A stretch of 64,000 nucleotides of DNA from Tribonema minus (lineage: Eukaryota > Sar > Xanthophyceae > Tribonematales > Tribonemataceae), in NCBI GenBank assembly GCA_017506865.1, contig JAFCMP010000279.1, positions 744,001 through 808,000 of the forward strand, read 5' to 3'. Positions 1-63,951 of the stretch are shown here, in pieces. How positions within the stretch are numbered: position 1 is the stretch's first letter; every line of letters begins with the position of its first letter. The notes beneath the pieces were generated by a model. The model made no database searches. It had not been told where the DNA came from and saw only the letters and a program-made list of their open reading frames with translations. The translations under genes and the position numbers were made by a program.

Positions 1-850
1 TGAGGTGCGTCAAGTTACAGTACATCTCTTGCTGCTGGTGGCGTGTGCGGCGGCGGCGGCGGCGGCTGGGCAAGCAGGAGGCCGATGTCGCAGTGAGCGC
101 GCGTGACGATCCATGCTGCTTGTGATGTATCACACGTGTATTGTTTATCACGAGACAGTGATGTTTGAAGTGCGTCAAGACATGGTACACCTCCAGCTAC
201 TGGGGCTGCGCGCTGCGGCGGCGGCGCGGCGGCTGGGCGAGCCGGAGGCGGATGTCGCGGTGAGTGCGCGCGTGAAAAACCATGTGCTGCCTGTGATGTA
301 TGGCACGTATTGCTTTGTTCGCATAACAGTAAGGTTTGAAGTGCGTCGAGATACAGTCACCTCCAGCTGCTGGGGCTGCGCGCAGCGGCGGCAGCGGCGG
401 CGCCGCGGCTGGGCAAGCCTGATATGGACGTCGCGGCGAGCGCACGTTTGTCTTCAATGTACAATGTTTCTGATGTGTCACGTGTGTTTATCGTGAAGCA
501 TTAGGACTTGCGGTGCTTCAGGATGCACCATACCTGAGGTCTGGGGGGCGGGGAGGTGCTGCTGGAGGCTGCGCGCGGCAACGGCGGCACAGGCGTTGAG
601 CGAGGTAGAGGCGGACGTCACGACAAACACTTGCGCGGGTGTACTACTTTTTGTTGTTCACTTGCAGCTTTCATATTCTATCATTGTACGGTAGGGTCAA
701 TTCTATAAAGTTATTGTACTACACACGAGGTGTATGGCAGGAGGGGAAGGGGGGGGGGGGATAGGGGCTAATGGGGAAGGGGGGGGGGGGGGGCTAGCTG
801 GGGCCGCGCGCAGCAGCGACTGGGCGGCGAACGTCGCGGTGAGCGCGTGC
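1..850 (+). repeat. Degenerate tandem array of exon 3'-edge copies
   Basis: Five decaying copies of one exon 3' edge lie at about 5-105, 171-285, 340-455, 530-640 and 790-850, with a period near 165-170 for the first three. Each has a CTGCTGGGGCTGCGCG-like core, a GCGGCGGCGG stretch, GGCTGGGC, and a GA(C/T)GTCGCG end. The splice donor after that end reads GTGAGC, GTGAGT, GCGAGC, ACAAAC and GTGAGC in turn. The DNA between copies also repeats (TGTGATGTATCACACGTGT at copy 1; related text at about 290 and 470). Copies 4 and 5 are interrupted by G runs (741-795). Confidence 0.7.
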
Positions 851-1678
851 GCCGCGTAGCAACCTGCGCCATACGATCTCTCGTGTACCGTGACCGCACC
901 ACATCATGCTGCTCCAGTGAAATACACTGCGCGCTGTCGTCGCCGCGCTGCGGGAGTGATCAACCTGTGCGCGCCGCCTTGCATGCCTTCGCGGTGTCGC
1001 AGGGCGAGCTGGCGAGGCTGTGGGCAGCAGCGCTCAGCAAGACGCTGCTCGATGACAACAATGCGCGGCTCGGGACGCTGATCCAGGACCTGCAGCGGGA
1101 TGGCGCGGCATGCCTGGACTACTACAGCGACTCCTGGCTGGAGGTGGGTGCCCTTGAACGTTGGCAAAAGCCTGCAATTGCGAGTGGCTGCGTTGCGAAG
1201 CGGTCTACGGCAACGCTCGACTACTATTGCTAGCACATGCTGTGCAGTGCGTGTTGCTCTTGCTCGTCACTTCAGCAACTTACACCATGTGTGTGCGTCT
1301 TGTGACTCCTTAACCACCAATCCCGTTCATCAGTGATTCGTTGCTTCAGTTGCGTACGCCAGCAACCTGTGCGCGTGCATGTATAATTATACTTGCGTAT
1401 TTGAAGTGATGTCGTCGTTCACTGGCCAATCGAAACACGGCGCCACGCAACACCGCCACGCGCAGGACCTCCTCCGCACGACGCCGCTGCACCGCGTGCT
1501 CGTCCGTGCGGCGCACGAGGGCCCCGGCGGCACTGGCGCGGGCTCTCTCGCCGACGACCTCACGGAAACGGTTTTGGAAGAGGCGCTGCGGCTGGCCTCG
1601 GGAGGGATCGTGTGTGACAACAGGGACCAGGTCATGCGCGGCCTGTTTGAGGTGTTGCGCAAGTGCCCGCGGGAGTGA
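1..1678 (+). CDS. 3' part of an unrecognised intron-containing gene (left edge cut)
   Basis: Two exons are well supported. Exon 1003-1143 follows an acceptor ending in cag and has donor GAG|GTGGGT; it encodes 47 residues beginning GELARLWAAALSKTLLDD and ending YYSDSWLE. Exon 1466-1678 follows cgcgcag, begins DLLRTTPLHRVLVRAAHEG, and ends at TGA 1676-1678 with LRKCPRE. Both are in phase 0. An upstream exon edge coding LLGLRAAAAARRLGEPEADVA lies at about 197-261 with donor GTGAGT, but it belongs to a repeat array, so I cannot tell which copy is spliced. The product looks helical and I recognise no family. The 5' end is outside the window. Confidence 0.55.
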
Positions 1679-2080
1679 AAGCGCCAGCTGATGGGGTGTG
1701 CGTGGGTGGGGGCGAAGGGGGGGGGGGGGGGGGGTAATGGCGTGCTGTGCTGCGTGTCGGGCGCAGAGCCCTCCCTTGAGAGCGTGTGTGGGGGAGCAGT
1801 CAGAAGGCGCGCCCAGGAAGCGGCGACGATGCGTTCAGTGCTCGCCATTGCGACAGATGCGCACGCGGCGGCAGCGCTCAGACGCTGACATGACAGGTTG
1901 CGCCCCGCCCCATGCCTGATTGTCTCGCCTTGCCTGCTGACAGCAAGTAGCTATGGCGCAGCCAAACGTTGGAGGTGCATGCAAAACAAAATGCGATGCT
2001 TCAACCTCTCTGTGCCCTGGTGTTGCAAGAAGCTGTGTGGTGGTGCTGCATCATTTGCCTGTTGTACTTGGGATATCTTT

Positions 2081-3671: not shown

Positions 3672-3940
3672 CGAAGCTCAGCGGGGGAAAACTGGCTTCA
3701 GCACTCGCACACTAGCAATTTGTTGGATGACAAACGCTCTCTATGACCTTAAGTCCGACACAAAGAAGCTCAGCCGGGGAGAACTGGCTTCGGCGCTCGC
3801 ACACTGGTGGCAGGTTGTTGGATGGCAAACCCCCTGAACCCCCTCTCTGACTCAAAACATGTACCCCCGGTCTTTTGTGAAGGATCGCGAGAAAGCTCAG
3901 TGCGGGGAAAACTGGCTTTGGTACTCGCGCCGCGATTGGT
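3672..3940. repeat. Three-copy diverged direct repeat
   Basis: A GAAGCTCAGC.GGGGA(A/G)AACTGGCTT unit followed by CTCGCACACT or CTCGCGCCGCG occurs at about 3672, 3770 and 3890. Partly shared flanks (GTTGGATG(A/G)CAAAC at 3722 and 3818) suggest a unit of about 95-120 bases. Confidence 0.6.
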
Positions 3941-4530: not shown

Positions 4531-7396
4531 TCACAGAGCGATGAGCGCGCTGCCGGCAGTGTCAACGGCGGCAGGGCTGGCCTCAGCGCAATTGGCCGCA
4601 GTGTCGTCGCCGCCGCCGTCGCCCACATTAGCGGCAGTGGCAGCGGCGACGGCAGTGGCGGCGGCAGATTCATCGGCGGGGGCGGCGGTGGGAGCAGCGG
4701 CAGCGGTACCAGCTGAAACGGGTCCGGCAGGGGGGCTGAGTGGTTGCGCGCTGCCATTGGAGCTGCAGGGGAAGCGCGGCAGCCAACAAGTGGCAGTGAG
4801 GCATCGGCTACAGTCTCATGCAGAAATGCGTGGGCACTGTTTGCCGGAGAAAGCCAACTTCAACAATACGTGCGTGTTTACCGTGGCCGGAAAGGGGCGA
4901 CCAGTGGTGCAGCGCAAAGGGCATGCTTCTACGATCGCAATATGCGCACGCGCGTGATTGTTGAGCAGTGCAGCTGCGCGAGCCAATGCGTGTGTTGGCC
5001 AATGTGGGTGACAGCTGCGTGTGTGCGTCACGGCGCCGCTAGCGCAGTCACAAGGGCTCATGCATCTCAGAGTGATCAAGCATTTCTGATGTGCCTCTGA
5101 GGTTCTGGTCAGTGCGAACGTACCTCGCGCGCTGCTCGGAGGGCACATCAGCAGCCACTGCGGAGTCCGCTGATGGCACCGCCGCAGTCTGATGAAACGC
5201 GCCCATGGCTTCATGGATGACGGCCATGGGTCGTGCCTGCCGAGTCAACGAGGCAATCAGCCCCACTGCCACTGGGTGCACCGCAGACGCACGGACCTGC
5301 GCAAGCAACGATGCAGCAGTGCGGTCAGTAGCGCCGCCGAGATCGCTGAGCAATGCTGCACATGACTGCAGCGGCAAACCAGCACGTAGGCGTCATGAAA
5401 TCAGCACACGTTGGTGAGTAGCGAGCACGGGGGATCTGTGCAACCTGCATGACCATTGCTCGTTATCATTCTGAACATTGTGATACCCGTAGGGATAACG
5501 TGGGTATGCCTGCACTGCGTGCCCACTACTACAGCGGGACGCTCTGCAGTACACAAGTCATGACAGATTGCGGTCACAGCATTGTAGCATCATCACACAC
5601 CTCGGAAGCATGACGACCAATGATCATTGACCACGACTGGCAGATACGCATCAGTACCAGCTGCCACAGTGCGCGCCTCTCAACTACATGCCTCAAAGCC
5701 GACCCTAAGCAAGTAGCTGCCGTGTGGACAAACGGACCGCCAATGGCTTTTGCACAGCAACACCCAAAAGATCAGGCTGCAGTACTCACCAGATCTGCGT
5801 ATCCAGTCAGCGCCTCTTTTGCCGTTGCAAAGTCCGTGCACACGGCGCCGATGGCAGCCTGTGCGCGGTGTGCCAGCTAAGTAGCTGCCGTGTGGACAAA
5901 CGGACCGCCAATGGCTTTTGCACCGCAACACCCACAAGATCAGGCTGCAGTACTCACCAGATCTGCATATCCAGTCAGCGCCTCTATTGCTGTCGCAAAG
6001 TCCGTGCACACGGCGCCAATGGCAGCCTGTGCGCGGCGTGCCAGCTCTGCAGCAGCGGGAGGCAGCTCTTGGGCCGACGCAGCCGGGGGTGCGACGCCGT
6101 CGTTCACCGGGCCGACAAAAGGGTGCTCTTGAACCACCGCAGACGTGCCGCCGCTGTCGCCCTCAACGAGACGCTCAAGAGGCTCTCTGCCAGGCGTGAA
6201 GGGGGGTGCGCTGCCAACAATGGGGGGCTCTCGGGCTGAGGCAGAGGAAAGCGTGCTGCCGTCACGTTCGGCGGAAACGGGCTCGTAAGCCGGCACAGAA
6301 CCGGGCGCGCTGCCGTCAGCTTCGAGGCGGCGCCTGTTGTCAGCGCGATCGTCTGTGCCGTCAGCAGTTGGTGAAGCCGCGCGCTTGGCTTGGGTCAGCG
6401 CAGGCACTCCTGCTGGCTCCTGGGAACCTGACGGCACACGCGCCGCAGCCCCCGGCGCACCTGCGGACGCCGCTGTGGCCTTGCTGCTGCTGCCACCACG
6501 CCGGCCGCGGCTGCTATCTCGACTAGAGCTGCCGCCGCCGACGCCATCGCCGCCGGTACTGTTGCCACCATCACCGCCACGGGTGCTCGGGGCTTGCATG
6601 AGCACATGCGCAGGGACATGTGCCCGGGTGGCGCGCTGCTGCTTCGAGTGACGGGTCAGCCATCTGTACCAGACGCAATAATCAATTGTACATGAATTGT
6701 CAGTAGATGCTTGTGATCATCAATGAGAGGTAAAACACAAAGCGTGAAATGAGCCGGCCAGGTGTGCCAGACGCAATAACCAATGTACATGAATACCCCT
6801 TGCGAAGCGAAATTAATAAAAGTACATGAATAGTAAGAAGGATGCTTGTGATCATCGTTGAGAGGCGGCCAGGTGTACCAGACGCAATAAGCAATGTACA
6901 TGAATACCCCTTGCGAAGCGAAATTAATAAAAGTACGTGAATAGTAAGAAGGATGCTTGTGATCATCGTTGAGAGGTAAACACAAAACGTGAAATCAGCC
7001 AGGTGTTCTGTGTGTCGAACAAGTTCTCGAACCCTCGATCGACAACACTTGCCTTTCGTCGGCCCGGAGCATGTTCAGGCTGTCGAAGACGTTACGGCTT
7101 GGCAGGTAGTTCAGCCATGGACGCAGGTCGCAGGCGCGCATACTGCCGCTGCTGTCCGGCCAAAGTAGCTTGTACTGCGTGATTTTGTCACGCCTGCCCG
7201 GTTCATCGAAGCGAAGGCATCCCCACACCCAGCTCTCCGCCCTTTCCTCATTGGGGTGTGACCACTTGCGAATGTGGCAGAGAATCCACTGCTGCCCATC
7301 GCTGCCTGCTTCACAAGCGTCCAGCGAGTACTTGGAGGCTTCGGCACGATCCAGCGCCTCAAAATATATAGGGGAACGGCGTGCCGGCTCGCGCGG
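4531..7396 (-). CDS. Unrecognised four-exon gene, C-terminal part
   Basis: Exons on the minus strand are 7396-7053, 6663-5958, 5365-5124 and 4762-4531 (TGA 4533-4531). Phases agree at every junction: AAAG|GCAAGT to TACAG|A, CTG|GTGAGT to GCAG|TCA, and GAG|GTACGT to GCAG|C. The first exon encodes a compact aromatic-rich segment (QQWILCHIRKWSHPNEE, ESWVWGCLRFDEP, QYKLLWPDSSGSMRACDLRP). The second is Gly/Ser/Ala-rich and ends AIEALTGYADL. The last is low-complexity Ala/Pro/Thr. The Trp-rich part could be a small reader-type domain, but I cannot name a family. The intron after 7053 uses a GC donor. The true start is not found; further exons probably lie between 7400 and 10600. Confidence 0.55.
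5709..6050 (-). repeat. Tandem copy of exon 3' end plus donor
   Basis: Positions 5709-5879 repeat 5880-6050 with few differences. The right-hand unit contains the real 3' end of the exon and its donor (exon end 5958, GTGAGTACTG). The left-hand unit repeats the same coding end and the same donor (GT at 5789-5788) inside the intron. Confidence 0.9.
6661..6990 (-). repeat. Tandem copies of an intron 3' end (acceptor region)
   Basis: The acceptor stretch that on the minus strand reads TTGCGTCTGGTACAG just before 6663 recurs in the intron at about 6768-6790 and 6880-6900. The units are about 118 bases long (GAAGCGAAATTAATAAAAGT, GGATGCTTGTGATCATCGTT). The two intron units are almost identical. 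In the copies the AG is altered to AC (GG(C/T)ACAC). Confidence 0.85.
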
Positions 7397-13600: not shown

Positions 13601-16600
13601 CATGTGATCACGCATTTGCAAGTCTTCACGTGGCCCTGGGCTGTGTGGTTGTTGCCGTGCGTTGCTTCCCCCCAAAGCGCCTGCCGCCCCCGCCGCATCG
13701 CTCGCATGCATCGGCAGCGCCGCGTCTTCTGCTGCCAGCAGCGGCAGCGACAACGGCGGCGGCGGCGGCGTGGCCGTAATGACCGTGCTGACGCTTTGGG
13801 TGGCGACGTCGACAGGCGGGGCCGTCTGCGAGTGCGGCTTGGCGTTGTGGCAGCCGCACGCGTGTTCCACTTCCTCCTCCTCTGGCGTCAAGCGCAGCAG
13901 TGCCGCCTGCGCAAGCGACGTCACGAGCGGCAGTTTTGAACTTAGTCATGCTGAGCGGTGTCTGCGAAGACAGGCACTGCGAAGTCTCACAGCACGCCTC
14001 CGTTGACAAGACGCTAAGCAAAAAATAATGTTTTGAGGGTGATGTGCTGCTGGTGCACAGCAAGTATTTGTAAAGAGTAGAGGTCCGTGCTGGAACAGAT
14101 CAGTGCTGCTGGTGGTACGCCAGACCTCCACCCCCCATGCGCTGCCGTCAAGCGGGGGACGGGGGAAGTATGCAGTCTAGATGAACAATGGCAGATTTGT
14201 TGTACAGTCATGGCCCGACGCCCAAGAGGATCGCATCGATGCCGAGCAGCAATCAATCTGCTGGTGAGAGTTGGGGGCCAACCGGGGAGCAATTGGAGGT
14301 TGGACGCGCGTGGTCATACATCACGGCTACCTACCCCTAGAGGTGCTAGAGCAAGACGATAACTGATGTTACGCTGAGCGATGCTGCTCCTGGCAAAATG
14401 CAGCAGCGCTCAATGACGTCCGCCTCAGGCGCCGGGCGCAGCACGCATACACAACCACGTGTCAGCGCTGTCACACTGACGTCACGGCAGTCGTGCAGCA
14501 CTACGCTGCGTGTGATTGCATGCCGCAAGCCGCTGAAGAAGAGGGGTATGTAGGCATCATGTAGTTGAGAATACGTGGGGATGACTGGCAGATCACCTGC
14601 ACAGTCACGGCGCGGCGGCGGCGGCAGCCTGCACGGGGGCAGTAGCGTGTCACGGGCCGGTCCTGTTGCTCACAGAGTGCGCGCCGCGACGATGATCAGC
14701 GAGTGCAATCAGCGCCGCGCCCCCGCTACCCCGGCTGCCAAGCTACTCAAAACATGGTGCTGGTGCTGCCGACATTGCCAAACCTATCCCCTGGACCCCC
14801 GTTCCCCTTTTCAGGCCCCTGAAATATATATACGGAGTATGTAGAGGGGAGTCCCAGGGGAAAACTGCCGTACCAGTGCGCCTCGCGCTAAGGTCTCAGG
14901 TGTCAGCGCTTCACGCCTCAACACCGTGTCACTAAAGCGCTACACGCCACCGTGTACTTATGTCACACCTCCATTGTACGGGCACCAGAGAAGTACAGAC
15001 GCGTACCTGTCAGTTCTGGTGGCAAGCTGAACGCCCACATCTGGGCTTTCTCACGCCCTCAGCAAGAATTGCTGAAAGTGGCAAGCTTGACGACCACATC
15101 TTGTTTTTTCCCCGCCCTAAGCTGAGTAGAATTCTAATAAAATCACGGAAGTGGTGCGTGCCTGAGCCGCCATTGTCTCTTTTGTCGCGCCCTGAGCGAG
15201 AGTTTGAAAAGGAAGTACAGAAGGCATGCGTGCCTGAGCCGCCGTCTCCCTGGCGGAGAGCACGCTCGCGAGACCGGCGCTGTTGCTGCATTATCAATAG
15301 GAAAGTGCAGGAGTGGTGCGTGCCTGAGCCGCCGTCTCTCTTTTTTCGCGCCCTTCATGAGAATTCTGATTTTCTCTTATTTTCTTTCAAGTTTTCCTAA
15401 TGTTTTGAATCTGGCCGAACTACTGAAAACTTTTTTTTGTTTCAAAGACACGGTGCTAAAAAACAAAAAATAAATCATGAATACAAAATACGTGAAGTAC
15501 AGAAGTGATGCGTGCCTGAGCCGCCATCTCTCTGGCGGTGAGCACGCGCGCGAGGCCGGCGCTGTCGCCGCCGAGGCGCTGCGCGCCGCCGGCGAATGCC
15601 TCGCGCACCAGCACGTAGCCGCCGCTGCAGTGCACAAAGCGATAAGAGGTGGAGTGAGGTCCATGTGTGCGGGATGCTACTGACATGGGAGTGATGCAAC
15701 TTCAACTTTGCAGCAGTCTGTACGTAGACGCCGCTGCGGAGCCCGAAGCGACGAGATCGAGTGTGGTCCATGCTCGTGTGTGTGCGGGATGCTGCCGACA
15801 AAAAGTGATGCAACTTCAACTTTGTGAACAAGTCTGGACGTAGCCGCCGCTGCAGCGCACGAAGTCATGAGATCGAGTGTGAGATCCATGTTCGTGTGTG
15901 TACGGAGATGCTGATGACATGGAGTGATACAGCTTGAAATCGGTTTGAATAGCGCTGAACAGAGCGGCTGCGTTTTCATATGCAGGGCGCGACGGGGCGA
16001 ACTGCCCGGGAACAGAAGCACTCCCTCTGATGATGTGCAGGGTGATATGCCGCTGGCCACGCACTGTGAGCGGCAGCTCGGTCTTGCTGCACATCATTGT
16101 ATGCGGGCAGGCAGGCAGAGAGCGGCTCGGCATTATTGTGCAACGCAGGGCCTAATGTAGATAATAAACCTGCTTCGGTGAGCACCACACAGAAATGCAG
16201 TACGACTAAACACACTCGACGGCGCTGCGCATTGTGGCTCGAGGAACACGCTGCATGCGGGCGGCAATTACATGAGCCACGAGAGCCACCCTAACCCTAA
16301 CCCTTAACCTTAATTCAGCACAGCAAAGTTGAAGTTCAATGGGAACGAATCAAAAGATCGTAGAGCTCTAGGTGACAAGGTGTGGTCGGCCGCAAGTGCG
16401 TTCCATCAAACACCGCGGTCGCCGCTGCTGCAGCCATTGGCCACGAGTCGCACAATCAATGTTTGTCTAGCTCACCTCTGGGGGCCCTCCGCGCGGTGGA
16501 CGCTGCGCGCGCCGCTGACTGTCACCCTAACTCTAACCCTAACCCTACCCTACTGCGAGCACAGCAAAATTGAAGTTCGAGTTCACCTTTGGGGGCCCTC

Positions 16601-19600
16601 AGCGCGGTGGACGCTGCGCGCGCCGCTGACTGTCCTGCCCGCCGACTGGGCAAAGTCAAGCTCATTTGCCTCCCGCTCGATCTGCGATAGCACGCACAAG
16701 CGCGGCAGGGCCGACCATGAGATGGAGGTGAGTCACAAGGGGCGATGACGCTGATGCTCACATGCTGTGTATCGGCTGCAGCTGAGCTGCGCAACGGCTG
16801 CCATGGCGCACGCATGTGGAAATGTAGGAATGTGTCTCTTTCTGCACATGGCAGCAAGGTGCACGAGGCAAAGCCAGGCGACTGTGTGCCACTTCAGGCA
16901 CCTTTCCAAGGGTGATTGCCCAAATTCCTCACGCAGCACTGGTGCGGCGCTTGCCAGTCTCAAGCGCTTTCACTGCATGCAGGCGAGCCAGGGCCGAGTG
17001 CTCATTGCCTGCGGCATTGCTGCTCACGGCGCGCTCAGCATGCGCTCGTTGACGCATTCGCGCAACCGTCGTGCGCATCAGCATCAGCGGGGGCTTGCGC
17101 CGTGCAGCGTGCACTGATGCTTTCATAGCACTGACCATTCACACACTTTCTTTGCAGTACTCGGTACGCTCGCGTCATGCGCGGTTGACTGCGCACGTCG
17201 GCGCATTATTGAAGTGCAATGATCATACTTTAGAAGTGTGCTTTGAAGTAATTCAAACGTAGTATGTATATATACACTTCGGAGTTGCAAACCAAACAAT
17301 CATCATCGCCGACTCACGGCTCACAACGGCTGATCTCATCAGCCACTATCCTGTGACCACTGTCATTCATTCATCGTACTTGCTGGTTGGGCGCAAAAGA
17401 ACCAGCGAGCTGCTGAACAACATCGGGCTTTGCTTTTGTCAAACCCAATGGCTGAGGCTCATGCTGGCGCATTTGAACACCCTAGATCTGACTAACATAG
17501 TGTGCACACATGACCGCGCGCAATTAGAGGTGACACACAGAAAGAATTTGCGCCTAGCTAGAGTATTGTGACTTTTCTCAACACTTCATTTGACATTGCG
17601 CAGACATGGCGCAATGCTGCGCCCAATGCGATACCGCCATGACAACTGATTATGTGGCAATATCACACGCACACACCTGTCGCATCAGCATGTAGAAGTC
17701 GTTGTCGTGGTCGCCGTACACGTTGTGCGCCAGCTCGTGGTAGAGAACCTGCAGCAGCACGCGCGCGTCATGCAGCACATGGGAACGAGCGTTGGTGCCA
17801 TCGGTACCTAATGAACCAGGTACATTTTTTGGTTACGAGAGAAACGGCGCCAAAAGGAACGCCGACTCTTCTTCGCGCGCTCGTGCTCACGGGTACAAAG
17901 GCTGCAGTCATGTACAGAGAACGGCAGAGTGCTTCTACATTTTGAAGCCGGATGTTGCCTCACGACGGCACATGAATCAAGCGGACGCTGAGCCCACAAG
18001 CCTTCCAGCGCAGACAGGCGTCCACTGCAAGCGACACCAGTAGCTTGCAGAAACCACGCGCGCTGCGGCGAAGGCGTGTCATCTCCTTCTTACAAGGCGA
18101 AGCCAAAAAACATTAATCGGCAACCACAATTACTGGTGAAAGGCACTGGCGGCTAGCCACACCTTGTCGCCTAGAGCACTACGATCTCTCGACGATCTTT
18201 TGAACCGTTTCCATCCATATAACAAGAATAATAATGAATAAATGCGGCGCCCACCTTGAGCATAGAGAGGGGCTTGCGGAACCCTTGGAGGTCGTCCGTG
18301 CGCACGCGCAGGCGTATGGTCTGCCCCCTGTTCTCATTGAGCCCCATCAGGCAGGTCTCGCTCACGCCGACCTGCAGCGTCAAAGGTATAGGCGCGCATT
18401 GTGAGTAACAGGGAGTTGTGAGGGGCTGGGTGTGTGGGTGCTGCCGAGTGGGCTTATAGAGAGGTGCTGCGTGCAAGGCTGGCTAGGCGAGTACTGCTAG
18501 GCCAGAAGTTATGTGGGTTTCAAGTGCTACGTGAGAGGGCTGCGCAGCGGTAGTGTAGGCACTGCTGCGAGGGTGGATAGGCAGAACCTGTGGTGCAGGG
18601 CTCGCGTGACGCAAACGTGCATGGTCTGAAGCAAAAACAGACACAAGGACCGTTTACAGATATAATTGTTGCGCCGACCTGCAGCTGTGATTGTGTAAGC
18701 TGAGGCGTGCCACAGAGCTGCGGATTATGATCACATGATCACGGCAGGCGGTGCCTGCACCCGCAGGCAGGGGAAGGGGGGGGGGGGGGCAAGCGCGCAC
18801 GCTAGTAACCGCACAAAGAGTGTACAGTACAGCAAGCAGGGGTTCATCGTGGACACACGCAGGGCGAGCTCCAATAACTGTGATGTGTGTCACAAGCAGG
18901 CGACGCGTTTGTACGTCGTGCAGCAAGTTGATTTCCCACATTTGAAGCGTGCGGCACTCATCAACGGCGCGGAGCAAACGACGTTCGGCACGTGTGGCGT
19001 GTTGCCCACCCTCCAATGCAGCGGTCAACACAGCCACGCAGAAAGGCGACCAGAAGGGGATATGCTGCAGAAGCCATACGTTCGGCACGTGTGGTGCGTT
19101 GACCGCCCTCCAATCAGCAGTCAACACAGCAGAAAACTTTCGACCAGGTCTCGCGCGACGCAACATCTGAGAGCCACCTGCGCAAACTCTACAGACCCTT
19201 CGCACAAGCCATGAGCACTGCTACACTGCACCGCTCACCTTCCCCTCCGGGTAGAGCTCTGTGAGCAGCCCCACTGTCCACTTGTGCTTGGCCATGACAG
19301 CGCGCACGCCGCACACTCGAGCAAAGAGACTCCTGACATGACATGTGACGCTTCCATCAAGGACCCTCCAAAGGTGCCAGGAGCACCCCTACACTGCAGC
19401 ACCCACCTTCCCTTCCGGGTACAGCTCGGTGAGCAGCCCGACGGTCCACTTGTGCTTGGCCATGACGGCGCGCACGCCGCGGTTCGCGGCAAGGCCCTCT
19501 AGAATGGCCTGCGCCTCGGCCTGGCGCGGCAGGCCTGGGAGGGCCTGGACAGGGCGGGCAGCGCAGGCACACGATGCAGCCGGTGATGGGCGTGCATGCT

Positions 19601-22600
19601 TCGGGTGCCTGTGGGTGATATGTGGTGACACTCACAAAGGAGCTCCACAAGGTGCGTAACTATTTCCTGCAGTGAATCTTCATAACATTATAGCAGGTGC
19701 CGCGGTCCGCGGCAAGTTCCTCCAGAATGGCCTGCGCCTCGGCCTGGCGCGGCAGGCCCCGGAGCGCCTGGGCGAGGCATGAACGACAGGAGGCTGATGT
19801 GAATGCGTGATTGAGTTAGTAGGTCACCAACTTTTAGTTGATATATCGTCAAGCAGGTGCCGCGGTTCGCGGCGAGGCCCTCTGAAATGGCCTGCGCTTC
19901 AATCTGGCGCAGCAGGCCTGGAAGGGCCTGGACGAGGTGGGCAGAGCAGGTACGCAATGCAGGCGCTGACGTGAGTGCATGCTTTGGGCGAATGTGTGAT
20001 GTGTAGTGTCGTTCACGAAGGAGCTTCAAAGTTGCCCACTTTTGCTCGTGGTGCAACTTTGAAGTATCAGGTCAGTTAGTGGAGCAGGTACCGCGGGCGG
20101 CGGCGCTGATGCGAGTATATGCTCAGGTGAATGTGTGATGCGTGGTGAGGCGAATGTGTGATGCATGGTGACACTCACGAAGACCTTCTGAATGTGCACA
20201 TGTCTTAATTAAGTGTATCGTTCAGATCAGGAAGCAGACACCGAGTTCGGCGGCCAGGCCCTGGTCTGCGCGTCATACTGGTCTGGCAGGCCTGAGGGTC
20301 TGACGGGGCAGCGCTCCTCACAGCGGTACGAATGTAGACAAGGAACATTGTGATAGGCCTTTTCATTCAGAGCACTTGCATGCGGCAGAGCAAGCTGGCG
20401 CAGCGCGTGTCGCAAACACTGGCGTGGTCGCTTCGTCGGGCATGAAGTCAGCCTTTGGTCGGACATACGGACAGGAGTTAAATGGTATAGACTCGGGCGC
20501 GTACTAAATGTGCAGTAGAATCAACCCACGGTGTCCGACACGCACGTGTGCCAATGTGTCCAGGGCCTGAGTATCCCTGGCGTGGTCGGTCAGGGTACAT
20601 TTTGTACAGCTGGCATGAAGTTCAAAAGGATACAGCACGCCCCCGCACCTGCACTCTCTCGAACACGTAGGGGGACCTGTCGCGGGGGTCGGTGCCCCCC
20701 ACGCCGAGTGGCACTTTAACGTACCCCTTCGGCACCACCTCCTCGCCGGTCAGGTCATCGCGAACCCTGTCGCGTGCAGAGCAATGCCACATAGGGTAGG
20801 TATTAGAGGGCAGGCTATATTTGACCAGTGCTGCAGCAAGTGAGCGTTTCTACTTGCACAACGTGAGAACTCCACGAGGGTTAGGTATGGGATGTGGCAT
20901 CACAAAGGCCATGCGGCAGCGCGACACTCTTTGTGCGTAAACACAACCCAGCACTTCCGCGTGCCCCCTTCTCTACAGTTAGCATGCCAGGCAGTCATTA
21001 CGTGAAAGTCTGCTTCAAGGTATATAGCCAGCATGAGCTGAATTTGCTTTACAAGCTGCTGTTATTGCAATGTAACAGGGAAACCTATACAGGCATGACA
21101 CCTGTGTGCGGTCGGTGAATGCTTTGAAGTACGAGATTGGACCAGTGCAAAAGCGGAGGTGCCGATAGGACCAGCAGACACCGTTGTTGCCAACCTCCAT
21201 GCCAGCTTCAACACGCTTCTTGATGACTGCATTGGTGGCATGACGCTGAGACGAACGCCATAACAATGCTGACAGCTGCTGCATGTATAAGCTGCCATAT
21301 ACATAACATGCAAAAACACGCATGGCAACTTCGATGCAGAGCGACGCCGCACACGCAGCGGCCGTACCTACATACCTGACATGAGGCGCCGGCTGAGACA
21401 CGGCCACAACGTCTGCCGCAGTGCTCCCGATGAGCATCAGCTTGGCGCTGCGGATGGGGTGGGCAGCCAATGTGGGATCACATGTCAGTACATGCGGACT
21501 GGCGCTGCAAGGAACAACAGCACGCTGGCCCTTGCTTGTTCTGATGAGCATACCTCGGGTCTCGATAAAACTTGCAATGGGGGAACAAAAGCAGAGGCCT
21601 GTGGGGCACACTACTTGTTACACGCTCTCACTTCAGCGCGGCATGCTGTGAAGCTTGTTGCTGTGTAGAGACCATTACGCATATCCATGCACACTTCCAA
21701 AACCCATCAGAGCTTCCACTTCGTGACCCATGATACGCCATACGCCATTGCCCTGCGAGTGTACTGCGTGTGTGCGACAGCAGAGGCAGCAAAACCACCA
21801 CACGTGGAGCAACTGACTTGACGGCAACACCAACTTTTGTTCTTCAATTGGTGAAGGCTGCGACCTCCGTTTCTGTGTTGAACGCAGGACACTGATGCTT
21901 GACAGGTTGCGGGCACGCGTCCTGTCATGTATTTTTGCTGCACAGTGGCGATGCTGCCCAGTACATGTGAAGTATCGGGACAGTAGTCCCGCTGCTGTGC
22001 AAGCGCGTATGGACGTGGCTAACATGCATACGAGCATCGTGATACTGGCAAAACGCTATGCTGGCCGCCGGCCCAAATCATGCCCATGCACATTGAGTCG
22101 GTTCGCGAACCACTTACGAAGTGCCTCTCCATTGTCACCCGCACAATGAATCGTAAATGAGACTCGTAACCCATACTGTAGCAGTACATGCCCGTGCTAA
22201 CGGCTGAGCGTTATTGTACATCAATGCACCAATGTGAGGAGGTGCCTCAGCGCCAGCCTGACTGAGGTCCGCACCGCAAGCACAGCAAGGCTGTATGGGG
22301 ATGACACAGTGTGCAGGCGAGCCCTGTATGACATCACTTGGACGTACGATGCATGCTGAGTATTCTACTACCGACACCGGCTTTTGCTGTCCACAGCACG
22401 CACCGGCGCACAGGCATAGACTCTCCACGCCAGGCACGTCCACAGCAGCAACTTGAAGCCACTGGCGACAATGCATGACACTCACCAGCTGTTGTCAGAT
22501 GCGACGCCCTCCGCAAGGGCAGCACACCAGGTGCGCCCATTCCAGCTGCAACATGCTTGAAGCAAAGCAGGACACATGCAGCAACACACGCAGCAGTTTG

Positions 22601-34447: not shown

Positions 34448-34480
<33 letters not shown>

Positions 34481-43400: not shown

Positions 43401-46400
43401 CTCGCGTCGCTCGTCTCCGCCGCGGAGGCGCCGGCACTGATCGGCGCGCTGGTGCGCGGCCTGCCGGCGTCGCCGCGGCGGCTGGCGCGCCACAACGCGG
43501 CGCACGGCACGCTGCTGCAGGTGCGCTCAGTGTTGCTCAATGCAGTTGGCGGCGTTGGCAGCGCACTGTGCAACGGACGCCTGATACGCCATTGCCCTGT
43601 GTCGTATGATGAGGTCATGGGCTGAAGCAGGAACACACGCTTGTCTGGCGGATATGGTTATGTAGGGTCGTGGGTCGATCCCCCCCCCTTCACCCCGTGC
43701 TCCACTGTCTTTCCCTGTGCCTGCTGCCTGCGCAGATCACCGAGCTGCTGAGGGTCGCCGCGGCGCAGGGCGCGCGTGCGCACGCCTCCGCCGCCGCCGC
43801 CGCCGCGCCGCTGCTCGGCGATCGCGCGTGGCTGCGTGACGCGCGCCACATGCCGTGCCCGCCCGTGCGCATCGCAGCGCTCGACGCCGCTGCCCTCGTC
43901 TCCGGCGCTGCCGCGGCGGCGCGCAGCGGCAGCGGCGGCGGCGGCAGCGGCGGCGGCGGTGCAGAGGCAGTTACGGGTCTGGCGGAAGCGGACGTGCTGG
44001 CGATCAGCGTACCACTGCAGGGGGTGCTCGGGGGAGCCGCAGAGGTGCGCAGCTTGCGGGCATGACGTGCTGCAGTAGCTGGTAAAGCTTGGTGTGGACT
44101 GTAGCAGCCGCCGCGAAGCGCGTAGGTAGCACTGCGTTCGTATCAGGGGCAGCGGCGCTGAGCATCTCCCTTGTGCATACATAACTTGGGTCGCATGCTA
44201 ATCATTATGGCACACTGGTCGCTTGCTGGGGGTGTGCTCTGGTCATCGGCAGCGCCGCGGCTCCGCAGCGCCGCAGCGACTCTCATCACGCATCGTGCGC
44301 ACGTACATGCGGAGGCCCAGCCACCAGAAAAGATGGTGTGGTGATCTCACCCCGTGCGCATTTGTTCCTTCACTTCACATCTCTGCTCACTGCGTGCAGA
44401 CTGCCGCAGCGTGCGACGTTCCGCCCGTGCCCTGTGAGGCGCTCGTCGCCGCGCGAGCTGCCGCGCTATGGACGCGCCTGCAGCTGCAGGCCTGCGCCGC
44501 CGCCGCTGCCGCCGCCGCTGCTGCCGCCCATGGCAGCAACGGCGGCAGCGCTGCCGCTGCGGATGGCGCGGTGGCGGCGCTGACGACGGTGCTCCGCGGC
44601 AAGGGCGTCGGCGGCGACGTGCGCGACGCCGTGATCAAGGCGCTCAAGCGCGCCGTCAAGAACGGCGGCGCTGCGTGCGGTGAGTACCAGTTCTGTGCGG
44701 GGCACGCAGTGCCATGTGCTGCGGGAATGAGTGGATCTCACGGTGTGTGAAGGCTGGGGGTCTCTTCTCAGCTTTGTGTGCGGGATGCTTGTCTCGCACA
44801 GCCGACTTGGAGTGCATGCGCAGCAGTACACACTGAGCCAGCTTGACGATAATGCGCATGCACCACCTCTTTTGAACAATCCAGGAGCGCCTCACTCCTG
44901 TGGCACAGGGCGCTGGCGTGTACAGCAGCTCGCGCAGCGCACGTTGCTGCCCCCGCGCCCTGCACTCTCGCACATGCGCGCAGCTCGTGCAAATCACACC
45001 CCCACCCCGCTATGATCACATCCCCACCCCGCTCTGCCTTATACTTCAGGTTAGAATGAGCAATTAGCTCTGCCCCACGCCCACGCGCTCACACAGACAG
45101 CCTTTGAACCTCAACTGCACGCACTGCCGCCGCGCGCAGGCCACAATGCAGACTTGTCTACACCTCATTGTCTTCAGCGCTGCCGTCGTGCTCAACCTCA
45201 CTCGCATCTGCGCTCGCGCTGCTGCCGCCTGCTGCCGCCGCTGCGCGCAGGCGGCGCGTCCGCGGCACTGCCCACCGGCGCCCTCCGCGCGCTGCGCGCC
45301 GCCGCCGCCGACAGCCTCGCGCGCTTCTACAATGCTGACTTTTCCACACCTCATTGTCTTCAGCGCACGCTGCCGTCGCGCTCAACCTCACTGTCATCTG
45401 CGCTGGCGCCGCCGCCGCTGCGCGCAGGCGGCGCGTCCGCGGCGCTGCCAAGCGGCGCCCTCCGCGCGCTGCGCGCCACCGCCGCCGACGGCCTCGCGCT
45501 TGAGAGCTACGCGCCCAATCGGCGCCGTTTGCTGCGGCTGCTGTGCCGCCTGGCCGCCCTGCTGGGGGCTGCAGAGCCCCCCTGCGAGGCGCTGCTGGGT
45601 CTGTGGGGGGTGTTGGAGGAGGGGGAGGGGCACGGGGACACGGCCGCCGCGGCGCTGGAGCTGATGGGGCAGTGCGTGCGGCACGGCGGGCTGAGCGTCG
45701 CACAGGTGAAGTTGTACTTGAAGTTTCGGCCAGCGTCGCACACAGTGGGCTGAGTGCCGCGCAGGCGGTATTCTTTTTGCCTGGAGTATGTGGTAGGAGT
45801 ATGTCAGGGCCAAGGTTGGTGTGTATTGTTAGCCTTAATGTGACAGTCACAGTTGAGATGTTTGCCAATCAGAAATGAGGCGACATCTCCGCCGCGGCCT
45901 TGGACGTCATGGACTAGTATGAGGATCGTGGCGGGCTGGCTGAGCGCGCTGCACAGATCAGTTTTTACGTGAAGTATTTGCGCTGGGATTGACATCACTG
46001 TTAGCGCAATGCTCTCAGTAATACATGATGCCATCATGATCACCTCACTTGGCGTCGCCCCGCGTGCCATTCGCCGACCTCGACGCATTCGGTCTTTGTA
46101 GGATTCTGTCGGAACCAGGTGGAGCACTGGGTCGCGGCGGTGAGCGCTGCTGCGCAAACGACGGCGATGCCATCATGATTACCTCAATTGGTGTTGCCCC
46201 GCGCGCCATCCGCTGACCTCAAACGCATTTTGTCTTCCTGCGATTCTGTTTTGACCAGGTGGAGCACTGGGTGGCGGCAGTGAGTGCTGCTGCGCAGACG
46301 ACGGCGCCGCTGGCGGCGCGGCAGGCCGCGTGCGCGACGCTGGCCGCGTCCGGCGCGCTGCAGCGGGAGGGCGACGCCGTGGCGGTGCAGCTCTGGTTTA

Positions 46401-59025: not shown

Positions 59026-62000
59026 CTATCGCGTCGCGACGACGTCGTCTATCTTGAGTATCATGCCCACGCACTCCGTCGCCAGCTTGATGGCGGAGCT
59101 GCTGACGAGCATCGGCTGCACGACGCCGCTCTCGTACATGTCCGTGATCTCCCCGCTGCGCGCAGCAGCAGCGGCAGCAGTGACACGGGCAGCAAATACT
59201 AGGTCACCCATGTGCGCAGGTGTCGCGCCAAGCAGCGCTTCACGAGTTCGACACAAAGCACATGCATGAGCCTCTGAGCAGCAACAGCATCAGGTCCTTA
59301 ACTATGTGTGGAAGTGTCTGGTCAATACTTTTTTAGGATAGAATGCAACGCCGTGCCAACATGACCCTTGACTCACTCAGCGGCAGCAACAGCAGAGGAG
59401 GGAAGGGCGTCACTGCAGCGTGGAAAGCATTTTACGCACGGCCGTGCCCAAAGGCTCAAACCCCGCACAGCGCGACGCACGCCGCCATACTTTTGCTGCA
59501 CTCGTCACCACCCTACACGTCAACACCTATACATAATACACCCATCATAGCGCGACGCGCGCCGCCATACCCTTGCTGCACCCGCCACCACGACGCACTT
59601 CAACATCTGCATACACATATATACATGCACGCACACCTGCCGACGTTGATGCCGGCGCCGCTCACACCAGCGCCGTGCTTCGCGCGCAGCTCCATGACCT
59701 TCTGTACGGGTTGAGCTTTATACATACACTTCGCGAAGTACACACATACATACATACCTGCGGACATTGATGCCGGCGCCGCTCACGCCGGCGCCGTGCT
59801 TCGCGCGCAGCTCTGTGACCTTCTGTATGGGGTTGAGCCCCGCATTCTCCGCAAGCGTGTAGGGGACCACCTCCAGCGCCTCGGCGTACGCCTTGATGCA
59901 GTACGCCTGCATGCCCGTGAGGGTCTTGCTCCAGTCGCCCAGCCGCAGCGCCATCTCGGTCTACGCGGGCGCGCGGGCGGCGGCGGCGCGCGTACAATGG
60001 ATTAGCGAGTGCAACGCGGCGCAGCGGCGTGATTGCGGTAGCACTGTGAAGTGTTTTTGCAGGTGCAGAGCGTGCCTGGAAGATGTGAGGTGCGCTCTGG
60101 CGCAGTGCCATCACTGTCTTCAAATGCGCGAGCGTGACGCGGCGGCGGCGGGCGCGTTCATCAGCGAGAGCATAGCAGCGCCTGCGCGGCTCACGCTGTT
60201 GAGCGATGCCTGTGGGGGGTGCAGTTGCCTGACGCAGCCGCTGCTGGCTGCCACAGAGGTCGGCTGTGGTACAGGTTGGTCGAGTACGCAGCTGAACATG
60301 CTGGAGTAGTAAAAGTAGCAACAGAAAGCTATAAAGGACTGTACTGGTAGCTGGAGCCGACTACTGCGACGACACGTATCAACGGCAGAAGCAACGTGGT
60401 GCAGGTCACGCAGGTACAGAGGGCACTCACTTCCATCCTGACTCGACCCGTACACCTAACCCAAACCCTAGGAGCTCTCTCACCTCCGCCGCGCCGCCGC
60501 CCGCAATGAGGAAGCGCTTCTTGACGAGGCTGCGCACTACGCAGAGGGCGTCGTGTATGCTGCGCTCCGCCTCGTCCAGGACCAGCCTGCGGCGCATACA
60601 AGACACCATCGAGAGGCGCAGCAGTGAGCGCAGAGCAGCAGCACAACCCCCAGTTAGGGCTAGGGTTAGTATTAGAGCGCGGTGCAGCTGCACGCGCCCA
60701 CTTAAGAGTTAGGGTCAGGGTGAAAGCGTGTGCCGTGAAACCAGTGCGCGCTGCGAGACCAGTACAGGAGCACCGCGCGGCTGCGACTTGAGCCGCGAAA
60801 GCGAGGGGGGACGCCAAGGCGTGTGAGCGCTGCTGCGACGGTGGTTGTTGCCCTGAGCGCACGCTGTCTGCTCATGCTTTCCGTGAGCATCGTGCACTGG
60901 TGCTTGAATCATTGCAGCGCGATGGCTTTTCCAGACCTGCGCTCATGACATCTGGGGTGCGCTGGCTCGTTGCCAGCGAAATGCATGTGGCCAAGCGTGC
61001 TGCCAAGCATTCCTCTAAGCACAAGCTCTTGCCTGGCGACGGCATAGACCGTTCGCGCTGCACATCAACGGCGAATCAGCCGCAGACTGCCGGCCGCGCG
61101 CTGCTGCCGCACACATACAGGTTATGAGAGTTGTGCACAAAAGGCAAACTGCCGGCTGCGCGCTGCTGCCACACATGTACGGACTATGAGAGCTATGCAC
61201 ATAAGCCGCTGCGCACTCAGTTCGCAATGGCCCGCTCACCTGTTGCTGCCGCGCACCAGGATGGTGGTGGTCATGCCGGCGCAACAACGATAATAGTCCC
61301 AGTACAAAGTTTGAAGGTACTGTGAGGAAACTTCTCTCAATTTCAGCGCGTGACGGCCCCCGTACCTGTTGCTGCCGCGCACCAGGATGGTGGTGGTCAT
61401 GCCCGCGTTGGGTGTGCCCGTGCACTTGACCACCTTGTGGCCCGACCCCGGCATGGAGATTTCCGCCACCAGAGCCGCCGACCCCAGCTGCACAGGAAAG
61501 AAAGCCAGCAGTTTGAAATCGTCAGTTATGGTTGCGCTGACAACAAAATCTTTGCAGATGCAACTTGCAAAGTTCATGTTTGTCATGTTGAGAGCGCGTT
61601 TGTCTGCGCGGAATGCAATGGTGAAGGGCTACACCACATGACATGTCAGTTGGGCCAGCCCCCATTGGGGCATCTATCTGCGGCGAACGAGTGATCAAGT
61701 CACTTGGCCGTACAAAGTCGTCAAGTCAGACTCGCCTTCTCCGCGATGAACGAGTCGACGTGCGCAACGGGCTTGCAGCCGAGCGGCGAACGAGTCAAGT
61801 CAAGTCACTGACCGCATAGAGTCATCGAGTCAGACTCGCCTTCTCCGCGGTGAACGCGTCGACGTGCGCGACGAGCTTGCAGCCGAGCGTGCGCGCAATG
61901 AACTCAATGCATGAGTCACTCAAACTTGACAGTGTCAGTTGGGCCCTGCCCCCATGGGGCATCTATCCATGGAGAACGAGTCAAGTCAAGTCACTGGCCG

Positions 62001-63951
62001 TACAGAGTCGTCGAGTCAGACTCGCCTTCTCCGCGGTGAACGAGTCGACGTGCGCGACGGGCTTGCAGCCGAGCGTGCGCGCGATGAACTCAATGTCGTT
62101 CCTCTCTACGTCCGTGATGACCATCATGTCCATCTTAGCCAGGAAGTGCAGCGAGAGGTCGTTGTACGCGTCGCGCAGGATGGACTTCTGGATGAGCAGC
62201 ACGTTGCAGCCCGCCTTCTTGAGCTTCTTGCACTGGCCCAGGATGTACTGCAGGGGGGGGAATGGGGGGGGGGGCAAGGGGGGGCGGTGGAGGGCGTGAG
62301 GGGAGAGTGGGGGGGGGGGGGGGGGGCGAATGGGACCGGCAGAGGGCGCATGGGAAGAGTGTTAAGGGGGGGGAGAGCAGCAAGGCAATGTGGAGAACAC
62401 GGCAGGTGAGCGCGCGCTCTCGTGCGACACGCAGTACACTCTGAGTACACCTCAGCAGGTACATGCGGCAAACGCATGTTCCTCTCTTCGCGCAGGGTGC
62501 GGTGCGTGGACGCTTGCATCATCCGTTCCAGCTTACACACGCGCCCGGTGCATACGGCGAGCGAGCAACATGCGGTACACTCCGAGTACACCTCAAGTAC
62601 ATGCCACGTCTGACACACTCTTGCCGACATTGCGGCCATCAGGCGCGCGCTCCCTGCCAGGCCAAAACAATCATAGTCACACACACACATGTGCACCTTC
62701 CTCACCTCGCTCCATGGACGAGCATTTGCTGATATGGACACGTGAGTACACTTCAACAAGTACACGCACACAACCGCACCTTCCTCTCCTCGCGCAGGAT
62801 GCGGTCCATGGACGCGTAGTCGCTGACCACGACGTTATTCTCCATGTCCGTCTTGGGCGCGCTGAGGCAGAACTGAATGAGGCCGATCTTGGCATTCTCG
62901 ACACGCGTGGGCGCGCCGGGCGTCTTCTTAAGGCCCTTCTCGAAGACAAGACCATCCACGAGCTCCGTGTCGTCGATGGTGCCGCCAAGCTGCTTGCAGA
63001 TCTGCGGGCAGCGGGGGCCGGAGGCGGGGGGGCAAGGGGGGAGGATTGTGTGGGGGTCATGCTAGCATTCACTGCTTTTGTAGACTCCTTAAATCCTTCA
63101 CACTCAACTCTGCACGTGCACTAAGGTCTGGAATGCGCATTTCTTCAGGTCAGGCTGTGTTGCAGCACCAACGTTCAAGCTCTTGGGGCTGCTGCATGGG
63201 ATCCTAACCCTAGGATAGGCATACACGAAATACCTGGCCTCCCTTGGGCCCGTTCTTATAGGATTACTTCTATTAAACATCAGTATGCTTGATCATCATC
63301 ACCTTCATGTCGTGCAGGGGGCCCTTTATCATATCATAAGCAAGTGTGTATGATGATTGTTACCTTGATGTCGCGCAGGTCGCAGTTGGTGGCGGTGGCA
63401 GCGTCGATGACGCGCAGCACCGCGTCCACGGCGATGGGGCTGATTACCTCGGAGTTCTGCCCGACAACCTGTGCGTGCACAGACAGGGAACATCATGCAT
63501 CGCACGTCAAGATACTTGTTCTAGTCGACCATAGCTGACTTTTGAATCATGAGCATGTTGGAGCTGTACGCTTGTTCCTCAAGCGACCAGCGCGGGTTGA
63601 GGGTAGGGTAGGGTGCTGGCAGGACATGCACTCTACGAGAGACTTGCATATTGCATGGCCAACCACACGCTGCCAATGAGCATGCAAGGCCTTGCGGTGT
63701 ACAGAAAGACGTTCTTATATGTCACAAGATACACGCAGATTCCGGTAGCCAGCTCGGCATCCACCTTCCGGGCTGTTCCGCGCTTTGAGCGAGAACTCAT
63801 GATGTACACTGCGGTCTACCGAAGGGCGCGCTCTCTGCGCGCGCGCGTGCGCACCCACCTTGCTGCTGAGGCACGTGTCGACGGCGCTGATAAGCGTGGG
63901 CCGGTCCGCCAGGTCCACGGGCTTGCTCATCTCCTGCAGCACCTTCTCCGC
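59026..63951 (-). CDS. CCT4: CCT4, TRiC/CCT chaperonin delta subunit (N-terminus off window)
   Basis: Eight exons give 397 residues plus TAG: 63951-63859, 63468-63364, 63001-62780, 62247-62026, 61487-61366, 60586-60484, 59954-59758, 59155-59026. All phases match, and the order follows CCT4 throughout: [192 protein letters not shown]. TRiC is the cytosolic ring that folds actin and tubulin using ATP. About 140 N-terminal residues, including the GDGTT nucleotide loop, lie beyond 64000. The donor at 62026 is GC (GAGAAG|GCGAGT). Confidence 0.97.
59634..59835 (-). repeat. Intronic copy of the 3' end of the CCT4 VTELRAKHG exon
   Basis: Positions 59756-59835 (real exon end and donor) are repeated at 59634-59716 with few changes (GTTGATGCCGGCGCCGCTCA(C)CCAGCGCCGTGCTTCGCGC region). 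The copy lies in the downstream intron on the minus strand. Confidence 0.9.
61238..61284 (-). repeat. Intronic copy of the RGSNR end of CCT4 exon
   Basis: The end of exon 61487-61366 (GGCATGACCACCACCATCCT to AGCAACAG) is repeated at 61284-61240, again followed by a GT donor (GTGAGCGG versus GTACGGGG). The copy lies in the downstream intron and lacks the exon's 5' part and acceptor. Confidence 0.92.
61700..62100 (-). repeat. Two intronic copies of a CCT4 exon 3' end with GC donor
   Basis: The last 70 or so bases of exon 62247-62026, its GC donor, and following intron recur at about 61822-61912 and 61718-61790 (plus-strand CAGACTCGCCTTCTCCGCG(G/A)TGAACG(A/C)GTCGACGTGCG). All copies keep GAGAAG|GCGAGT. 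Intronic parts (GTCAGTTGGGCC..GCCCCCAT.GGGGCATCTATC) are also duplicated (61645-61680, 61932-61970). Confidence 0.92.
62251..62330 (-). promoter_or_regulatory. G/C-run 3' splice region of CCT4
   Basis: On the coding (minus) strand, runs of C at 62330-62251 end in CCCCCCCCTGCAG|TACATCC. The acceptor of exon 62247-62026 therefore has an almost pure C tract in place of a U-rich polypyrimidine tract, as in several THADA introns on the other strand. Confidence 0.7.

What the first reader, a model, noticed from the sequence alone, without database searches (positions are those of the whole stretch)
1..63951. Partial copies of exon edges, with their splice site, recur in adjacent introns in all five intron-bearing genes
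Seen directly for at least 12 exon edges. 3'-edge copies with donor lie downstream: left-edge gene, gene at 4531, WLM exons 5, 8 and 9, THADA exons 9, 14 and 18, three CCT4 exons. 5'-edge copies with acceptor lie upstream: gene at 4531 (intron end), WLM exons 5 and 9, THADA exons 23 and 24. No copy carries both splice sites, so none can form a full extra exon. Units of roughly 100-220 bases span part exon and part intron. A local duplication process seems to run across exon/intron borders and enlarge introns while multiplying one type of splice site. It could be neutral, or the extra donors and acceptors could buffer or regulate splicing. I know of no description of such a pervasive pattern, but cannot search.
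Basis: partly seen in the sequence, partly recalled or inferred. Interest (0 to 1): 0.88.

Follow-up and report, generated by a model that had tools for sequence, protein, structure and literature searches.

The report
Exon-edge copies inside algal introns
In the yellow-green alga Tribonema minus many introns hold private copies of the end of the neighbouring exon, splice site included, left by short tandem DNA duplications that straddle the exon border and look like neutral relics, which makes such genes a natural test of how cells pick the right splice site.

Summary
The window is Tribonema minus (my spliced CCT4 equals the published 528-aa protein). In 15 genes (8 chaperonin genes picked by Pfam, 7 models of contig C279) 59 of 276 exon edges have a copy in the adjoining intron, 111 copies in all; a reversed-intron decoy gave 1. 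Copies are mostly one-sided: 3' edge plus donor downstream, 5' edge plus acceptor upstream. They are remnants of tandem duplications, spacing near 160 bases. They look neutral: differences fall on codon positions as for an untranslated copy, and splice dinucleotides survive about as often as neighbouring bases. Two arrays match nothing outside their own intron in the 158-Mb genome. Random placement may not explain all: with exons hidden from detection 23 of 68 families span an edge directly, 42 of 68 counting edge copies, against 17.7 expected. It is patchy: 0 of 117 edges in 100 kb of two other contigs. Best reading: neutral tandem duplications across exon borders, tolerated because true sites pair across the exon, with a likely but unproven preference for edges and for certain genes.

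The parts
1..447 (+). Array (period about 171) holding copies of the 3' end of the exon that ends at position -85, just left of the window; one copy at 196-264
   Evidence: self-match 1-270 vs 166-446; TRF 46-402; exon part -148..-80 matches 196-264
5711..6046 (-). 168-base tandem duplication spanning the 3' edge (5957/5958) of exon 5958-6409; intronic copy 5790-5849, donor GTGAGTAC kept
   Evidence: (95% identity)
15234..15289 (-). 3'-edge copy of WLM-gene exon 15516-15624 in the following intron (exon end taken from a predicted GC donor; uncertain)
   Evidence: (88% over 56 bases)
15613..15938 (-). Tandem units over the 5' edge of WLM-gene exon 15516-15624 (12 exon bases)
   Evidence: 15613-15720 vs 15722-15836 match 89/105
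16450..16634 (-). 3' end of a low-scoring predicted WLM-gene exon (16587-16681) and its copy at 16450-16523
   Evidence: 63/71 match
19239..19298 (-). 3'-edge copy of WLM-gene exon 19407-19544 with GT donor
   Evidence: (92% over 60)
19708..20299 (-). Three 5'-edge copies of WLM-gene exon 19407-19544, each with AG (19708-19767, 19868-19927, 20251-20299)
   Evidence: (90, 85, 82%); matches only its own intron in the genome
32528..32587 (+). 3'-edge copy of THADA exon 9 (32316-32458) with GT donor
   Evidence: (85%); exon from published protein
36345..36993 (+). Four copies of the 3' part of THADA exon 14, stopping short of the annotated donor at 36205; my gene finder places donors at 36178 and in two copies
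41122..41180 (+). 3'-edge copy of THADA exon 18 (40818-40985) with GT donor; a weak second match, donor lost, at 41715-41771
   Evidence: (97% and 70%)
45123..45499 (+). Duplication at the 5' end of THADA exon 23
   Evidence: 146/162; exon start not covered by the published protein
46027..46306 (+). 140-base tandem duplication spanning the 5' edge of THADA exon 24 (46259-46420); copy of the exon start 46119-46166 with AG
   Evidence: (92%)
59637..59692 (-). 3'-edge copy of CCT4 exon 59758-59960 with GT donor
   Evidence: (93%)
61240..61281 (-). 3'-edge copy of CCT4 exon 61366-61487 with GT donor
   Evidence: (98%)
61736..61899 (-). Two 3'-edge copies of CCT4 exon 62026-62247, both keeping its GC donor (GCGAGT)
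   Evidence: (95 and 93%); no match elsewhere in the genome
62478..62512 (-). Older 3'-edge copy of CCT4 exon 62780-63001, donor lost (AT)

Best explanation
Short tandem duplications of nuclear DNA (spacing of successive copies mostly 130-190 bases) arise with one end in an exon and the other in the neighbouring intron. The half that stays joined to the rest of the exon goes on being spliced; the other half, an exon stub with a single splice site, is stranded in the intron, and further rounds build arrays (eight stubs in one intron, the limit of that search). Shown: tandem geometry, one-sidedness, privacy of two arrays, neutral-looking decay of stub and splice site, introns enlarged. Inferred: (1) the duplications are made by end joining or fill-in at staggered breaks, as small tandem duplications are known to be; (2) they are tolerated because the true site is the one nearer across the exon, so an exon-definition spliceosome keeps choosing it; (3) edges are hit perhaps 1.3 to 2.4 times more often than random placement predicts, more so among young ones, and some genes far more than others, for a reason not yet known (exon-linked breakage is my lead).
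For: Copies and flanks align as tandem units in the arrays shown. 59 of 276 edges, 111 copies, decoy 1. Copy-parent differences at codon positions 1/2/3 are 8.4/8.4/16.3%, copy-copy 13.7/12.9/18.8%, so copies are not held as coding sequence; splice dinucleotide kept 83/99 against 0.80 expected. Where flanks can be aligned (57 of 99 copies), their divergence is 15.6 and 23.2% in the two main bins (26 and 24 copies) against 8.9 and 10.7% for the exon part, near the two-to-one expected when one side of the exon comparison is held. Nearest-copy distance median 168, successive spacing median 159. Exon-masked detection, collapsed introns: identity >=0.90 7/9 vs 2.6 expected (P 0.003), >=0.85 11/20 vs 6.0 (P 0.015); counting families that hold a true or copied edge, 42/68 vs 17.7 (P 5e-11). 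A simulation of neutral decay lifts the detected edge fraction only from 0.32 to 0.39, against 56/85 seen. Copy donors that keep GT or GC are nearly as strong as true ones (median 5.1 vs 5.5; random intron GT 0.2), yet the published CCT4 protein uses none.
Against: The direct masked test over all ages is not significant (23/68 vs 17.7, P 0.08), so the edge preference rests on young families (9 to 20) and on the looser definition. Exon-part and flank divergence do not correlate across copies (Spearman 0.16, P 0.24), several old copies have exon parts far more alike than their flanks (C135 intron 2: 0 of 47 vs 24%; one at 4 vs 34%), gaps are four to six times rarer in the exon part, and 42 of 99 copies have no alignable flank; occasional gene conversion may be missing from the model. 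It gives no reason for the differences between genes (chi-square 54.3, 14 df, P 1e-6; C10 and C50 zero). A flat profile of repeat coverage with distance from the edge does not support edge anchoring, though it cannot tell parent from copy. The true donor is at least as strong as the copy in 39 of 50 pairs (acceptors 22 of 36), so strength alone may explain much of the choice of site. No RNA or strain data; most models outside CCT4 and THADA are my predictions.
Confidence: 0.65

Rival explanations
1. Uniformly random tandem duplication in intron-rich DNA, with exon edges merely better visible because the parental exon is conserved and because duplications inside exons are purged; no real edge preference.
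For: Exon conservation does bias detection: 56/85 families unmasked but 23/68 direct when exons are hidden; with collapsed introns the direct masked test gives P 0.08; the coverage profile is flat. Duplications outside gene models exist (2079-2339, 6751-6976).
Against: Young families, nearly all of which would be seen in simulation, are mostly edge-spanning: 7/9 vs 2.6 and 11/20 vs 6.0 expected. Simulated visibility raises the edge fraction only to 0.39. Lowering the complexity filter adds two families, one of them intron-only.
Confidence: 0.2
2. The copies are functional: spare donors and acceptors that buffer or regulate splicing, kept by selection.
For: Copy sites are often about as strong as the true site; 14 of 99 readings from a copy into the exon are free of stops against 4.9 by a naive count that ignores base composition; some exon stubs are much better conserved than their flanks.
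Against: Splice dinucleotides are lost at about the neutral rate; distances mod 3 show no in-frame excess (donors 21/19/17, acceptors 10/14/18) and 85 of 99 readings meet a stop; the six copies with the least diverged flanks show no slower stub (5.3 vs 3.8%).
Confidence: 0.07
3. The introns themselves were born by tandem duplication of an exon segment containing AGGT, and the copies are what remains of that birth.
For: Some introns are largely tandem units (C544 intron 4).
Against: Geometry is wrong: 52 of 67 best copies are 3'-edge downstream or 5'-edge upstream copies with the same kind of site as the parent. Four of six insertions in the Heterococcus CCT4 model sit at Tribonema intron positions, so those introns look old (inferred).
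Confidence: 0.03
4. A mobile element (introner-like) carries the repeats.
For: Many introns carry repeats.
Against: Each copy was found by match to its own exon; two arrays searched match nothing outside their own intron in the 158-Mb genome (that search skips very common words).
Confidence: 0.01

Closest known systems
Small tandem duplications made at DNA breaks with staggered ends (mouse and human cells, PMC8355091, passages read; it cites Vaughn & Bennetzen 2014 on rice, not held)
   Same: Short head-to-tail duplications; 0-4 bases of extra match at the ends of four near-perfect tandems here
   Different: Introduced there as short (<100 bp) insertions; the passages I saw do not speak of exon edges or of piling up in introns; the repair route here is untested
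Tandem exon duplication and mutually exclusive exons (PMC6071210, passages read)
   Same: Duplication of exon with part of the adjoining intron
   Different: Here the stub mostly has one splice site, shows no coding constraint and is not used in the published CCT4 protein
Intron gain or shift by tandem duplication (PMC2891723 in Drosophila, passages read; PMC4974935 in potato, search listing only)
   Same: Tandem duplication around a splice site or proto-splice site
   Different: There a duplication within coding sequence makes a new intron; here existing introns are enlarged and the CCT4 protein is unchanged
Splice-site choice by proximity across exon or intron (PMC9225289, abstract and outline read)
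   Same: Gives the rule by which the true, exon-proximal site would win here
   Different: Built on a database of alternative splice sites, not on natural duplicates in an alga

Membership tests
Short tandem DNA duplications | Adjacent head-to-tail copies, alignable over the whole unit | tested here: met
   Near-perfect tandems 5711-6046 and 46027-46306; six arrays shown with homologous flanks; flank homology detectable in 57 of 99 copies, not in 42
Short tandem DNA duplications | Made by break repair (end joining or fill-in) | not testable with these tools
   Only 0-4 bases of extra match at the ends of four near-perfect tandems
Tandem exon duplication / mutually exclusive exons | Copy has both splice sites | tested here: not met
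   4 of 67 best copies cover the whole exon; 231 sides of exons up to 260 bases were examined
Tandem exon duplication / mutually exclusive exons | Copy kept as coding sequence | tested here: not met
   Copy-copy differences 13.7/12.9/18.8% at codon positions 1/2/3
Intron gain by tandem duplication | Intron start copies the downstream exon start and intron end copies the upstream exon end | tested here: not met
   Upstream copies are 5'-edge in 21 of 27 and downstream ones 3'-edge in 31 of 40
Introner elements | Same element in many unrelated genes | tested here: not met
   Two arrays match only their own intron; only two tested
Exon-definition splicing | Sites closest across the exon are used when sites compete | tested here: inconclusive
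   The published CCT4 protein matches parent sites only; true sites are also often the stronger ones; no RNA data

The most novel reading that the evidence does not exclude
Exon borders are true hot spots of DNA duplication in this alga: something tied to exons (nucleosome placement, splicing-linked breakage, GC steps) breaks or re-copies DNA there in units about the size of a nucleosome repeat, in some genes and not in others, and the many one-sided, near full-strength splice-site copies that result amount to a natural competition experiment for exon definition outside animals.
Probability: 0.35. Interest if true: 0.78.

Novelty: new variant of a known kind. Interest (0 to 1): 0.62.

Why it matters
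If it holds beyond this sample, it shows introns growing by partial exon duplication, with copies from about 70% to 100% identity; gives many natural pairs of competing splice sites with a clear prediction (the exon-proximal site wins); warns gene predictors (my own called several stubs exons); and would point to a link between exon borders and DNA breakage if the edge preference stands.

Tried and rejected
BLAST self-comparison with lax gap costs lost near-diagonal repeats, so the counts (22 of 29 edge-spanning vs 7.6) were set aside, as were the first diagonal-scan counts (19 of 52 vs 10.9; 15 of 31 vs 5.3), for those. A coverage profile by distance from the edge was flat. The impression that stubs are under constraint was largely dropped after flanks were aligned with gaps and a ratio near two appeared; outliers remain. 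Growth of arrays from the exon end is not clear: nearest copy most similar in 14 of 23 multi-copy edges, rank vs identity P 0.35, edge arrays not significantly longer than others (P 0.13). Intron and exon GC do not obviously separate rich from poor genes (by eye). Genome-wide counting was not possible.

Dropped or partial data: 8 of 10 chaperonin loci fetched (C516, C51 not); two Pfam matches and one predicted C135 exon dropped as copies; no exon was found for one C235b match; on C279 I left out single-exon genes, the model at -79932..-61581, and predicted exons under score 8-9 or resembling a better exon. In one search, 12 of 111 copies do not come within 6 bases of the edge and are left out of the splice-site tests. 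By one further edge (C511, 3180) counts, mostly on intron sequence. One search had 1 decoy hit. Literature: nothing describing this pattern in the listings (open-licence papers only); the T. minus genome paper was not among them.
Full report
What it is. The window is positions 744001-808000 of contig C279 (1,057,420 bases) in a 158-Mb genome of 554 contigs. A CCT4 protein spliced from window exons and the adjoining stretch is identical over 528 aa to the published Tribonema minus protein, whose contig has that same length. THADA exons were fixed from the published 1844-aa protein, which ends before the last exons that I predict. Other genes were modelled with a self-trained gene finder: donor consensus CAG|GTGAG, acceptor GCAG|G.

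Is the observation there? Yes. Self-comparison shows local direct repeats through the genes of the window. Chaperonin genes, chosen by a Pfam search and not by repeats (8 of 10 loci held), show the same. Edges with a copy, per gene: C135 8 of 12, C544 5 of 12, C5 5 of 14, CCT4 6 of 20, C235 1 of 10, C511 0 of 10, C279a 0 of 14, C235b 0 of 10; on C279 the left-edge gene 15 of 48, the model at -59205 7 of 48, THADA 6 of 50, WLM 3 of 16, gene at 4531 1 of 6, g76381 2 of 10, g69981 0 of 2. Together 59 of 276 edges, 35 donor and 24 acceptor, 111 copies; the reversed intron gave 1 hit. (The per-gene denominators add to slightly more, since they count every intron; the total counts introns of 60 bases or more.) Predicted genes on four other contigs gave 2 of 127 edges, both on C100, with 1 decoy hit; C10 (70 edges) and C50 (47) gave none, although by the look of their translations they hold ordinary genes (no family search was run on them).

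Anatomy. For exons up to 260 bases the best copy is a 3'-edge stub when downstream (31 of 40) and a 5'-edge stub when upstream (21 of 27): the geometry of a tandem duplication straddling one border. The ungapped exon part has median 48 bases; beyond the splice site the intron aligns unit to unit in the six arrays shown. Nearest-copy distance has median 168, successive spacing median 159 (quartiles 134-193). The CCT4 exon with a GC donor has copies that keep that GC. Two arrays match nothing outside their own intron.

Do the copies do anything? The pattern is close to neutral. Differences between copy and exon are 8.4, 8.4 and 16.3% at codon positions 1, 2, 3, as for a free copy plus silent change in the exon; between copies 13.7, 12.9 and 18.8%. 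The splice dinucleotide is kept in 83 of 99 copies, 0.84 against 0.80 expected. Distances modulo 3 show no in-frame excess; 14 of 99 readings from a copy site into the exon are open, against 4.9 by a naive count that ignores base composition. Where flanks can be aligned (57 of 99), their divergence is 3.8, 15.6 and 23.2% in bins of 6, 26 and 24 copies while the exon part shows 5.3, 8.9 and 10.7% (one more copy: 33.8 against 3.8): on average near the two-to-one of one held and one free side. Against this: the two measures do not correlate copy by copy (Spearman 0.16), gaps are four to six times rarer in the exon part, 42 of 99 flanks cannot be aligned, and some copies have almost unchanged exon parts beside worn flanks; occasional gene conversion from the exon would explain those and is not excluded.

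More than random? Under uniform placement of units in present-day introns 17.0 of 85 families should span an edge; 56 do. Three biases favour edges: the conserved exon keeps old copies visible, duplications have already lengthened introns, and duplications inside exons are purged. Collapsing introns raises the expectation to 22.4; adding the visibility gain of a decay simulation (edge fraction 0.32 to 0.39) to 27.0 (P 9e-12), doubled odds to 34.0 (P 3e-7). Hiding exons from detection leaves 68 families: 23 span a true edge directly against 17.7 expected (P 0.08, not significant; 13.6 and P 0.004 on present-day introns), but 7 of 9 at identity >=0.90 (2.6 expected, P 0.003) and 11 of 20 at >=0.85 (6.0, P 0.015). 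Counting families whose aligned part holds a true or copied edge: 42 of 68 (P 5e-11), 15 of 19 and 8 of 9; this is an upper figure, since a later intron duplication can pick up an old stub. An edge preference between 1.3 and 2.4 fold is likely, not secure. Families per collapsed intron length differ between genes (chi-square 54.3, 14 df).

Why it is tolerated (inference). Copy donors that keep GT or GC have median strength 5.1 against 5.5 for their parents, acceptors 5.36 against 5.38; the parent is at least as strong in 39 of 50 and 22 of 36 pairs. By geometry the true site is nearer across the exon and the copy nearer across the intron. By the rule of PMC9225289 (abstract read) an intron-definition spliceosome would favour the copies and an exon-definition one the true sites; the published CCT4 protein uses the true ones. 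So these genes suggest exon definition, site strength, or clean-up of mis-spliced RNA; RNA data would tell.

Known or new. Small tandem duplications at staggered breaks (PMC8355091), tandem-duplication intron gain (PMC2891723) and tandem exon duplication (PMC6071210), each read in passages, are the nearest known things. None of the ten listings I searched describes one-sided exon stubs filling introns. I file it as a new variant of a known kind.

Noticed in passing
36014-36205 and 36345-36993: My gene finder puts the donor of THADA exon 14 at 36178 and gives two of its copies donors too, while the published model uses 36205; the copies stop short of 36205. The stubs may correct the annotation.
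   Followed up: partly
62026-62247: CCT4 uses a GC-AG intron (donor GCGAGT); both intronic copies keep the GC.
   Followed up: partly
L012-L021 (C10 and C50, 100 kb): No exon-edge copies at 117 predicted edges, against 59 of 276 in the other gene set: strong regional or gene-level differences without explanation.
   Followed up: partly
49856-52021 and 54139-56314: Two long single-exon LRR reading frames lie as an inverted pair about 73% identical.
   Followed up: no
53125-53519: A 395-base stretch is 84% identical to its own reverse complement.
   Followed up: no
26560-27753: A larger local duplication (offset about 540 bases, 78-88% identical) inside a THADA intron, not touching an exon.
   Followed up: no
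36703-36743: Nearly seven copies of the telomere-like unit AACCCT inside a THADA intron.
   Followed up: no
P0006 (Heterococcus CCT4 model, 848 aa): Extra residues sit at four of the intron positions of Tribonema CCT4, as if introns had been translated; suggests shared, old introns.
   Followed up: partly
56433-57224: Intronless reading frame with a GH114 glycoside hydrolase domain (Pfam E 1.7e-83).
   Followed up: no
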